DNA of 37,971 nt from Haloparvum sedimenti (GTDB lineage: Archaea > Halobacteriota > Halobacteria > Halobacteriales > Haloferacaceae): assembly GCF_001462205.1 (NCBI RefSeq), contig NZ_LKIR01000127.1, positions 7,525 through 45,495 on the forward strand, read 5' to 3'. This document shows positions 22,832 to 23,962 of the stretch, one piece after another. Each line of letters begins with the position of its first letter. The stretch's first letter is position 1. A program made the position numbers and the translations under genes. The notes below the pieces were generated by a model, which made no database searches, was not told where the DNA came from, and saw only the letters and a program-made list of their open reading frames with translations.

Positions 22832-22848
22832 GGCGACTACGTGGTCGG

Positions 22849-22853
22849 TTTTT
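22849..22853 (+). terminator. T-tract terminator of the PLP enzyme gene
   Basis: Five T residues 18 nt after the stop codon, at the edge of a long gene-free region. Confidence 0.5.
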
Positions 22854-23712
22854 GAGGGTGAGTAATCGGGCAAGAGGGTGACTCCCCGGACGGTTTCGTC
22901 CGCGTTTCCCGCTCTGTCTCCGCAGCTTCCGATTTTGCTGTCGATCCTGCTGCTTGGAACAGCACCACCCAGAAAGCCCCAGCCGGCTCGACCGGCCGCC
23001 GTGAGACGGTCCGGGCTGCCTGCGGTGGCGGGCTGCCGGGCTGCGACTCACGGGCTCCCGCTCGTGCCTCGCGGGAACGCGGCACGCTCTGCGCGCTCGC
23101 GCCTCTCCACACCGCCCGCCGCGAGTGCTTGAGGCGCCGGGGCCGGATCGAGCCGGCTGCCCCTTTCAGTCCCACCCAGCACCGCAACCGCCCCGCAACC
23201 GCACAGCAGCCTCACACCTCCCCAACCTCGTCGGCGGCGCGGCCGCGAAACCGCACCGCAGGGCGGCCGCGCCGCCGCCTCCCTCGCGCGGTCGCGGCGA
23301 CACGCGTTGCGGTCGCCGCGGCGCGCGCCAACCGCACCGCCCTGCACAGCACCGCGAGCGCCTGACAGACGGACGTTTTTGGCGGATGAGGCAGAACTCC
23401 CGCCGTGAGTGCTGCCCTATTGCTCCAGCCACGGCACATCGCCCCGTCGGCTGTCCCACGCTCGGCGTCGCAGGCGCGCTACTGCACGCCTGCGAGCAGC
23501 GAGAGCTTGTCTCTCGCCCGCCGCGCGACCCTGACGCGCGCGAGGGAAGCCCGCCCGCGGCCGGAGCAACGCGGAGGCCGCGGGCGGCTGAGGCTGGGGA
23601 GGCGTGAGGCCCCGCTTGACTCGACAGCCGAACTAGAGACTCACCGAGCAACCGGCCTCGACGATAAACTCCACAAACCGGGTCCTGGCGGATTGAAAGG
23701 GCGAGGCCGGTC

Positions 23713-23783
23713 GCGGGCGCTCAGACGACCCCTATCGGCGCCGGGCATGGCGGAGAGGCGCCGATATGTCGCTGAGCGCCCGC
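23713..23783. repeat. Long imperfect inverted repeat (hairpin)
   Basis: GCGGGCGCTCAG at 23713-23724 pairs perfectly with 23772-23783, and ATCGGCGCC at 23734-23742 pairs perfectly with 23757-23765, giving 21 base pairs around a 14-nt loop with a small internal loop. The next bases outside also pair in part. It abuts the 75-bp tandem repeats. Confidence 0.85.
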
Positions 23784-23931
23784 GAGCGGTCGAGGGCTTT
23801 CTGAGTGTTGGCGGCAAGCGCAGCAGGTCGCTTGATCACACAAAAATCGACGTATGGCGAGCGGTCGAGGGCTTTCTGGATGTTGACCGCAAGCACAGCA
23901 GGTCGCTCACTCATGCAAAAAGTCGTGTCTC
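23782..23931. repeat. Two tandem 75-bp repeats
   Basis: Units 23782-23856 and 23857-23931 agree at about 58 of 75 positions, including the identical first 22 bases (GCGAGCGGTCGAGGGCTTTC then TG), the AGCAGGTCGCT word and a CAAAAA run. They end about 30 nt from the stop codon of the aminotransferase gene. Translation in any frame does not give a known protein, though the period is a multiple of three. Confidence 0.85.
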
Positions 23932-23962
23932 TCGGAAGACGAACCACCGAACTCTGTTCTAC

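What the first reader, a model, noticed from the sequence alone, without database searches (positions are those of the whole stretch)
23713..23931. Hairpin plus two 75-bp repeats in a gene-free region
A 21-bp-paired hairpin abuts two tandem 75-bp units (about 58/75 identical). This is the only dense repetitive structure in 1.1 kb without genes and it ends 31 nt from the aminotransferase stop. It could be a remnant of a mobile element, a non-coding RNA or a replication/recombination site.
Basis: seen in the sequence. Interest (0 to 1): 0.5.

Follow-up and report, generated by a model that had tools for sequence, protein, structure and literature searches.

The report
Haloarchaeal folded, modular interspersed repeat family
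The hairpin and its two 75-bp repeats are one copy of a large family of folded, gene-free DNA repeats scattered over a hundred times through this salt-loving archaeon, with relatives in many other salt-loving archaea, that probably spreads like a parasite without carrying its own enzyme.

Summary
In detail: the two 75-bp units match at 58 of 75 positions, and the hairpin is real and larger than described (38 pairs, 23695-23801). It is not isolated. The 1.13-kb gene-free stretch is two divergent copies, A (+) and B (-), of a modular interspersed repeat. Their shared core motif occurs 126 times in this 3.24-Mb genome and in 86 of 392 Halobacteriales genomes (32 of 32 of the Halorubrum genus group, 10-193 copies each; Halorussus litoreus 129). 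Copies have GC-rich hairpins, the core GAGGYTGGGGAGG-N2-3-GAGG, usually (in this genome) a large closing hairpin, then 0-5 tandem ~75-bp units. Stem sequences differ between copies while pairing is kept. In most arrays the inner units are nearly identical and the outermost is diverged, so arrays grow locally. Copies lie somewhat more often between convergent genes, show no open frame, and match no Rfam family. Best reading: a non-autonomous mobile repeat that works like pneumococcal BOX elements; mobilisation in trans is inferred, not shown. A transcribed structured RNA family is the main rival. Haloquadratum PATEs are nearest in style, but the IS605 link was tested and not met. Eight literature searches turned up no earlier description.

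The parts
22832..23962 (.). gene-free region between convergent genes, occupied by a divergent pair of repeat elements (B on -, A on +)
   Evidence: matches elsewhere in the genome tile most of it
22900..23361 (-). B-type element, read right to left: P2 hairpin, P3 hairpin, core, closing hairpin, one 3' unit
   Evidence: (96 matching pieces in the genome); borders approximate
23316..23331 (-). 5' start of the B element (GGCGCGCGCC.., P2 hairpin)
   Evidence: similar starts in H. aidingense and Halorussus copies
23210..23229 (-). conserved core of B (GAGGTTGGGGAGGTGTGAGG)
   Evidence: 126 copies of the pattern in the genome
22968..22987 (-). 3' arm of the B closing stem (GCCGGCTGGGGCTTTCTGGG), start of its single 3' unit
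23362..23446 (.). linker shared by other A/B pairs and some B copies (contains ACTCCCGCCGTGAGTGC at 23396-23412)
23447..23931 (+). A-type element (5' CGGCTGTCC.. to end of unit 2)
   Evidence: window 23534-23901 is 93.75% identical over 368 bp to the copy at C45 (L011)
23549..23588 (+). P3 GC hairpin just before the A core (inverted repeat 23551-23562 / 23576-23587)
   Evidence: I9; equivalent stem kept paired in other copies
23590..23609 (+). conserved core of A (GAGGCTGGGGAGGCGTGAGG)
23695..23801 (+). head hairpin: 38 pairs in 3 helices, with strong covariation between copies
23782..23856 (+). unit 1 (75 bp); its first 20 nt are the 3' arm of the head hairpin's closing stem
23857..23931 (+). 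unit 2 (75 bp), the outer, diverged unit; 58 of 75 identical to unit 1; its A-run 23917-23921 reads TTTTT towards the aminotransferase's transcription

Best explanation
The feature is one copy of a haloarchaeal family of non-autonomous, modular interspersed repeats. An element has a folded 5' part (P2 and P3 hairpins), the conserved core, usually (in this genome) a large closing hairpin, and a 3' unit of about 75 bp that begins with the 3' strand of the closing stem. SHOWN: dispersal, maintained folding, a core shared across genera with 3' unit sequences that differ by lineage, and local tandem expansion of the inner unit. INFERRED: (1) copies spread when a trans-acting recombinase or transposase, not identified, recognises the folded strand or the ends; (2) copies persist where they do little harm, next to gene 3' ends; (3) the 75-bp unit then multiplies at the locus by replication slippage or unequal recombination, adding copies on the inner side and leaving the outermost unit old and diverged; (4) smaller hairpin modules insert into the loops. 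Folding probably matters on the strand that reads the core as GAGGCTGGGG, either as single-stranded DNA during mobilisation or as a transcript.
For: Copies: 43 and 96 matching pieces in the own genome for the A head and B, 58 for the middle part; pieces are not copies (several per copy), and only 40 first-look candidates were scored per search. Core motif: 57 + 69 copies in G000, and 86 of 392 Halobacteriales genomes. Named genomes: 13 of 17, e.g. H. xinjiangense 165, H. distributum 138, Halorussus litoreus 129. A near copy elsewhere in the genome is 93.75% identical over 368 bp. Maintained fold: A head, 31 two-sided-change cells against 12.0 shuffled, 99.3% of cells paired, slid controls 0-3 such cells; P3 stem, 72 cells against 22.2 shuffled (maximum 35 in 500), 35 distinct rows. 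Array growth: consecutive inner units 91.4% identical (25 pairs, 9 at 100%), last pair 69.4% (20 pairs), between-locus first units 71-73%. The same plan in another family: one Halorussus litoreus copy (L254) has a closing hairpin and two closing motifs exactly 75 bp apart, and another (L247) has the A-type signature TGGCGGACTGAAAGGGCGAGG. Placement: 29 of 72 loci convergent and 11 divergent, against 18 of 74 convergent gene pairs in background stretches; median gap about 45 bp to gene 3' ends and about 125 bp to 5' ends. Nested hairpin modules in 25 of 81 core copies. No common open frame: each of the six frames is stopped in 24 to 45 of 75 first units.
Against: No movement was seen: no clean filled/empty pair of one site could be tested. 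An exact search for the inverted ends found 9 copies in 60 loci (CGATACTGAGTG.. / ..AGTATCG), with no clear target duplication, and the open reading frames read around three further places with the end motif show no transposase by eye. For the other copies the ends are not defined. The placement bias is modest (81 of 128 sides face gene 3' ends; separate binomial p 0.03 and 0.06). Four of 20 arrays (L066, L078, L108, L032) have no young inner units. Stem covariation could arise without selection, by quasi-palindrome correction. The 75-bp B unit sequence is absent from 8 Halorubrum genomes, and only 2 of 20 Halorussus and no clear H. aidingense locus of 20 show the closing hairpin, so the family is held together by its 5' part.
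Confidence: 0.62

Rival explanations
1. A transcribed, structured non-coding RNA family: each copy is an RNA gene (or UTR module) made from the + strand, and its fold is kept because the RNA works.
For: Covariation in two independent stems. G.T mismatches outnumber A.C in the 5' stems, 24 to 7 over three genomes (18:7, 2:0, 4:0), and the + strand folds better than the - strand in 87 of 120 copies, which points to one strand. TATA-like motif 18-24 nt before the P2 hairpin in 12 of 18 H. aidingense copies.
Against: No expression data. The G.T counts are not independent, since copies share ancestry. By the usual archaeal spacing (recalled, not tested) the TATA-like motif would start a transcript inside the P2 arm. 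No Rfam match. Some copies lack the hairpin (L022, L030). Over 100 paralogues with differing 3' ends look more like a repeat than a gene.
Confidence: 0.2
2. PATEs or other transposase-free derivatives of IS200/IS605 transposons, as described for Haloquadratum.
For: Same style: palindromes, heterogeneous copies, no defined inverted ends or target duplications in most, high copy number, small hairpin modules inserted in the palindromes (PMC3119063 passages).
Against: The 9 TnpB and 4 TnpA loci of this genome were compared with nine elements. Strong hits come only from the two overlapping loci of one transposon (L287, L296), where the transposon sits inside the element's unit region and its own ends are different; L288, L289, L297 and L299 give only weak hits (best E 5e-5), the other seven none.
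Confidence: 0.1
3. A chromosomal working site, for example a transcription terminator for genes that run into the unit end, or a nucleoid/topoisomerase site between convergent genes (REP/BIME-like).
For: Convergent placement in this window and in 29 of 72 loci. Units carry A-runs, so the minus strand reads T-runs towards a gene arriving from the unit side: AAAA in 40 and AAAAA in 28 of 75 first units, TTTT in 0; in the window 23917-23921, about 42 nt past the aminotransferase stop. Archaeal terminators are T-rich (recalled).
Against: 43 of 72 loci are not convergent and 23 of 64 unit ends face a gene start; 35 of 75 first units lack even AAAA; 306 of 392 haloarchaeal genomes lack the core. No transcript ends were available.
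Confidence: 0.1

Closest known systems
BOX elements of Streptococcus pneumoniae
   Same: Modular: fixed outer modules with a unit present in varying tandem copy number; intergenic, folded, non-autonomous, over-represented between convergent genes; clusters and nested insertions (passages of PMC3049150).
   Different: BOX elements have inverted ends and target duplications and are 67-637 bp in a 39.5% GC host; here both are undefined for most copies, the sequence is GC-rich, and the 75-bp unit carries a strand of the closing stem. The archaeal core is shared across several GTDB family groups.
PATEs (palindrome-associated transposable elements) of Haloquadratum walsbyi
   Same: Haloarchaeal, transposase-free, high copy, palindromic, heterogeneous, targeted by small hairpin repeats (passages of PMC3119063).
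   Different: PATE palindromes match IS605-type transposon ends; not so for the 9 TnpB / 4 TnpA loci tested here.
SMR-A small mobile repeats of Haloquadratum
   Same: About 110-bp repeats with inverted ends that insert into palindromes of other elements, like the hairpin modules in 25 of 81 copies here.
   Different: No sequence comparison was possible; analogy only.
MITEs
   Same: Nine copies have CGATACTGAGTG.. / ..AGTATCG inverted ends and no coding capacity was seen.
   Different: No target duplication seen, no partner transposase found in the places read, and these ends were not found in the other copies searched.

Membership tests
BOX elements | outer modules plus a middle unit in variable tandem number | tested here: met
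   0-5 units per copy, spacing 75 in 46 of 74 cases; here the repeated unit is at the 3' end, not in the middle
BOX elements | boxA/boxB/boxC sequence | not tested
   no sequence comparison made; works like BOX, no claim of membership
PATE / IS200-IS605 derivative | palindromic ends shared with an IS605-type transposon | tested here: not met
   blastn of nine elements against 13 TnpA/TnpB loci of this genome; the only strong hits are to one transposon that is inserted into an element
MITE | terminal inverted repeats | tested here: inconclusive
   9 copies with both ends in 60 loci searched by an exact motif; diverged ends would be missed
MITE | target-site duplication | tested here: inconclusive
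   no shared flank bases by eye in the 9 copies
MITE | ends match a transposase-carrying element of the host | tested here: inconclusive
   23 exact end motifs in the genome; open frames read around 3 of them show no transposase by eye; 4 further stretches were fetched but not read
Structured ncRNA (any Rfam family) | match at the gathering score | tested here: not met
   window 0 hits, region at E<=5 only five sub-threshold miRNA/snoRNA models, 20 element loci: only one tRNA beside an element
Structured ncRNA | covariation of the fold | tested here: met
   also compatible with DNA hairpins
Structured ncRNA | transcription | not testable with these tools
   no RNA data available

The most novel reading that the evidence does not exclude
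A haloarchaea-wide, self-spreading structured nucleic acid: an ancient folded 5' module (P2, P3 and the G-rich core, which in a KCl-rich cytoplasm might form a G-quadruplex) that is kept under selection for its fold, is present at up to about 190 copies per genome, and picks up new 3' tandem units and loop modules lineage by lineage, spreading through a folded single strand (a transcript or ssDNA) rather than by a classical cut-and-paste transposase.
Probability: 0.14. Interest if true: 0.82.

Novelty: new variant of a known kind. Interest (0 to 1): 0.55.

Why it matters
If right, 32 of 32 sampled genomes of the Halorubrum group, most of the genus group that holds Halorussus litoreus (15 of 18 by hand count) and some other haloarchaea carry a repeat family for which the searches here found no description, at up to nearly two hundred copies per genome and in DNA without genes. 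It gives an archaeal counterpart of the pneumococcal BOX repeats, with an unusually clear record of how a tandem array grows (inner side young, outer unit old), and with stems whose sequence changes while pairing stays. It also supplies fast-changing loci that could be used for strain typing, and it poses a direct question: which enzyme moves it?

Tried and rejected
Rfam: no family. Replication origin or recombination site: rejected because of copy number. Coding repeat: 66 of 74 unit spacings are multiples of three, but no frame is consistently open. IS605/PATE origin: rejected for this genome's 13 TnpA/TnpB loci. MITE with a host transposase: the end motif CGATACTNAGTG occurs 13 + 10 times; the open frames read around three places show no transposase by eye. 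Viral link: 51 IMG/VR stretches match the core pattern, but 0 of 51 have the upstream GCG..GAGGG part, so they are probably chance; no phage record matches at E 1e-5; three haloarchaeal plasmids have short matches with no listed gene under them, two of which I looked at. Orthologous-site tests were weak. The exact core motif is absent from 79 of 80 relative loci around the aminotransferase, the exception being a copy about 4 kb away in Halorussus; a looser blastn also gave weak hits in three loci (L137, L151, L124), and the left neighbour is not shared there. Upstream of gatE the site is filled in G000 and in one Halorubrum genome and lacks the motif in the other 28 of 30 loci, one of which has a copy near the 3' end of gatE, which does not settle whether the position is inherited. 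A promoter reading of the H. aidingense TATA-like motif was not adopted because of its spacing.

Rows dropped before counts. One search uses 11 of 18 A copies with the head's 5' arm: two with inserts (L013, L018), two with the hairpin deleted (L022, L030) and three with a longer, re-arranged stem (L014, L019, L021) were left out. The 81 core copies used are those in the stretches I fetched, found with a slightly looser pattern, out of 126 exact core matches. One search prints 71 of them (no anchor, N runs or duplicates dropped), and in about five a module inserted upstream spoils the stem fit. One search uses 35 distinct rows. One search uses my own simple gene caller, trained on ten genes of the window. 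In one search the 8 composite loci are counted apart. The printed outputs were cut in the middle, so remarks by eye on them cover only the visible part. In the self-check I added; it gave a complete table for the IS605 test, the A-run counts and the Halorussus 75-bp spacing. Because of the A-runs I raised the working-site rival from 0.08 to 0.1.

Full report
What was checked. The hairpin spans 23695-23801 with 38 pairs, larger than the 21 pairs named. The stretch 23695-23931 folds with z = -4.8 against 200 dinucleotide shuffles. The region 22832-23962 has no gene and lies between two genes that point at each other: a Cys/Met-metabolism PLP enzyme on + and a class-V aminotransferase on -.

It is one of many. 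Searching the genome that holds the window (G000, 3,243,052 bases, 143 contigs) with 23695-23931 gave 43 matching pieces. The minus-strand stretch 22840-23220 gave 96, and 23221-23694 gave 58. One copy can give several pieces, and each search scored only 40 first-look candidates, so these figures are not copy numbers; the core motif count is 126. The gene-free kilobase is a divergent pair: element A on + (about 23447-23931) and element B on - (about 23361-22900), with a linker between them. At least one other locus, C31, has the same layout.

Anatomy. In this genome both types share, 5' to 3': a GC-rich P2 hairpin starting GGCGCGC and ending GCGCGAGGGA; a P3 hairpin of about 12-18 pairs; the core GAGGYTGGGGAGG-N2-3-GAGG; a spacer; usually GAAAGGG(G)C, a large hairpin and GGGCTTTC; then a unit of about 75 bp that begins with the 3' strand of that closing stem and carries AGCAG near its middle. 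In A, an extra pair of strands (CGGCTGTC .. GACAGCCG) encloses the 5' part; by eye it hardly varies, so it gives no covariation evidence. Nested modules are common: 25 of 81 core copies contain a CYACTGCACGC hairpin, 15 of these also an AAATCTCCGATTT hairpin.

The fold is kept while the sequence changes. For the A head, 11 copies (of 18 with the 5' arm; see dropped rows) give 99.3% paired cells, 8 pairs with changes on both sides and 31 such cells, against 12.0 in shuffles; sliding the partner by 1-3 columns gives 0-3. One measure there is not above shuffles: further pair types, 13 against 12.2. For P3, 35 distinct rows give 91.8% paired, 12 pairs and 72 cells with two-sided change, against 76.4%, 7.1 and 22.2 in shuffles. 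Within the 5' stems, G.T mismatches outnumber A.C by 18:7, 2:0 and 4:0 in three genomes, and the + strand folds better in 47 of 75, 16 of 17 and 24 of 28 copies. This hints that the strand with the core matters, but the copies are related and the counts are not independent. Quasi-palindrome repair could also preserve pairing without selection.

The arrays grow from the inside. Among 20 arrays with at least three units, consecutive units other than the last pair are 91.4% identical (25 pairs, 9 at 100%), while the last pair is 69.4% identical, about the level between first units of different loci (71-73%); Mann-Whitney p = 2e-6. Four of the 20 (L066, L078, L108, L032) have no young inner units. 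Spacing is 75 in 46 of 74 cases and 78 in 12. The window's two units (58 of 75) fit the common two-unit state (29 two-unit arrays, mean 70.9%): one inner unit and one old outer unit.

Placement. With a simple gene caller, 29 of 72 loci lie between convergent genes, 32 between tandem and 11 between divergent genes. Background pairs from the same genome gave 6 of 32 and 12 of 42 convergent. In the 64 non-composite loci, 41 unit-side and 40 5'-side neighbours present their 3' end (p 0.03 and 0.06), with median gaps of about 45 bp to gene 3' ends and about 125 bp to gene starts. This is what tolerated insertions look like. It is also compatible with a role at gene ends: 40 of 75 first units hold AAAA and none TTTT, so a gene running in from the unit side meets T-runs, and archaeal terminators are T-rich (recalled).

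Distribution. The core pattern is in 86 of 392 Halobacteriales genomes, and the backward-pattern control is nearly always 0, occasionally 1. Single hits in a genome may be chance; by my hand count of that listing about 55 genomes have ten or more. All 32 genomes of group g14 have 10-193 copies. Named genomes have counts identical to g14 members (for example H. aquaticum 39/63, H. xinjiangense 96/69), so g14 is Halorubrum; Halorussus litoreus (67/62) equals a g44 member, and 15 of 18 g44 genomes have the core (hand count). 13 of 17 named genomes have the core (one of them, Halogranum, a single hit) and four have none. The window's genome is the only one held of its genus. In H. aidingense and Halorussus copies the P2-P3-core part is recognisable, while the 3' part mostly differs, and the B unit sequence of this genome is absent from 8 Halorubrum genomes even with three mismatches. 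Yet the plan can recur: of 20 Halorussus litoreus stretches two show the closing hairpin, L254 with two closing motifs exactly 75 bp apart and L247 with the A-type signature TGGCGGACTGAAAGGGCGAGG and closing motifs 48 apart. The 5' part and the hairpin-plus-unit plan are therefore old, and the unit sequence changes by lineage.

What moves it. Nine copies in 60 loci have inverted ends CGATACTGAGTG.. and ..AGTATCG, without a clear target duplication. 23 copies of the end motif exist in the genome; open reading frames around three of them show no transposase by eye. The genome has 9 TnpB and 4 TnpA loci. Only one IS605-type transposon touches an element, and it is inserted within the element's unit region, with its own different ends; weak hits elsewhere have E 5e-5 or worse. 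So no mobilising enzyme is identified, and movement itself is inferred from dispersal, near-identical copies in different places (93.75% over 368 bp) and patchy distribution.

Comparison with what is known. BOX elements (passages of PMC3049150) are the closest in how they work: modular, with a tandemly multiplied unit, folded, non-autonomous, and over-represented between convergent genes. Haloquadratum PATEs and SMRs (passages of PMC3119063) are the closest in host and style, but the defining IS605 link was tested and not met. Eight library searches for haloarchaeal or Halorubrum repeats (a ninth, sought BOX elements) and passages of five papers other than the BOX paper gave no description of this family. 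The library lacks most subscription papers, so an earlier description elsewhere is possible.

Verdict. A real, dispersed, folded and modular repeat family; the finding is its local copy. Non-autonomous mobile repeat 0.62; transcribed structured RNA family 0.2; IS605-derived 0.1; chromosomal working site such as a terminator 0.1.

Noticed in passing
L296 1262-1460 and L287 1855-1980 (G000 C103): An IS605-type transposon (TnpA plus TnpB) sits inside the unit region of a B element, so one mobile element has used another as its landing place.
   Followed up: partly
L252 (Halorussus litoreus C3:122600-124100), about 563-680: Six head-to-tail 16-bp copies of the core itself (GAGGCTGGGGAGGTTT), a different kind of tandem growth of the same motif.
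   Followed up: no
L254 (Halorussus litoreus C4:27400-28600), about 690-900; L247 minus strand: In a different haloarchaeal family a copy has the closing hairpin and two units exactly 75 bp apart, and another has the A-type signature, with different unit sequence.
   Followed up: partly
L055, L098, L100, L103-L105, L107, L110, L111: A subgroup with MITE-like inverted ends CGATACTGAGTG / AGTATCG; beyond the ends some flanks read GATAG / CTATC, so the inverted repeat may be longer.
   Followed up: partly
L014, L019, L021: In these A copies the head stem is re-arranged: the 5' arm reads like the 3' arm of the other copies (GTCGCTGAGC), as if the hairpin arms had been swapped.
   Followed up: no
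L267-L286 (H. aidingense copies): 12 of 18 copies have a TATA-like motif 18-24 nt before the P2 hairpin; TTATAAA motifs also stand on the 3' side.
   Followed up: partly
L302 about 1100-1350 and L300 about 770-1100, upstream of gatE: Both this genome and one Halorubrum genome carry an element just upstream of gatE, with different layout; 28 other loci lack the motif there. Inherited position or repeated insertion is undecided.
   Followed up: partly
G000 elements, e.g. L057, L058, L071, L082, L104: Runs of ten Ns (assembly gaps) fall inside elements, so copy and unit numbers in this draft are probably underestimated.
   Followed up: no
3' units of G000 elements: 66 of 74 unit spacings are multiples of three (69, 72, 75, 78, 84) although no frame is consistently open.
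   Followed up: partly
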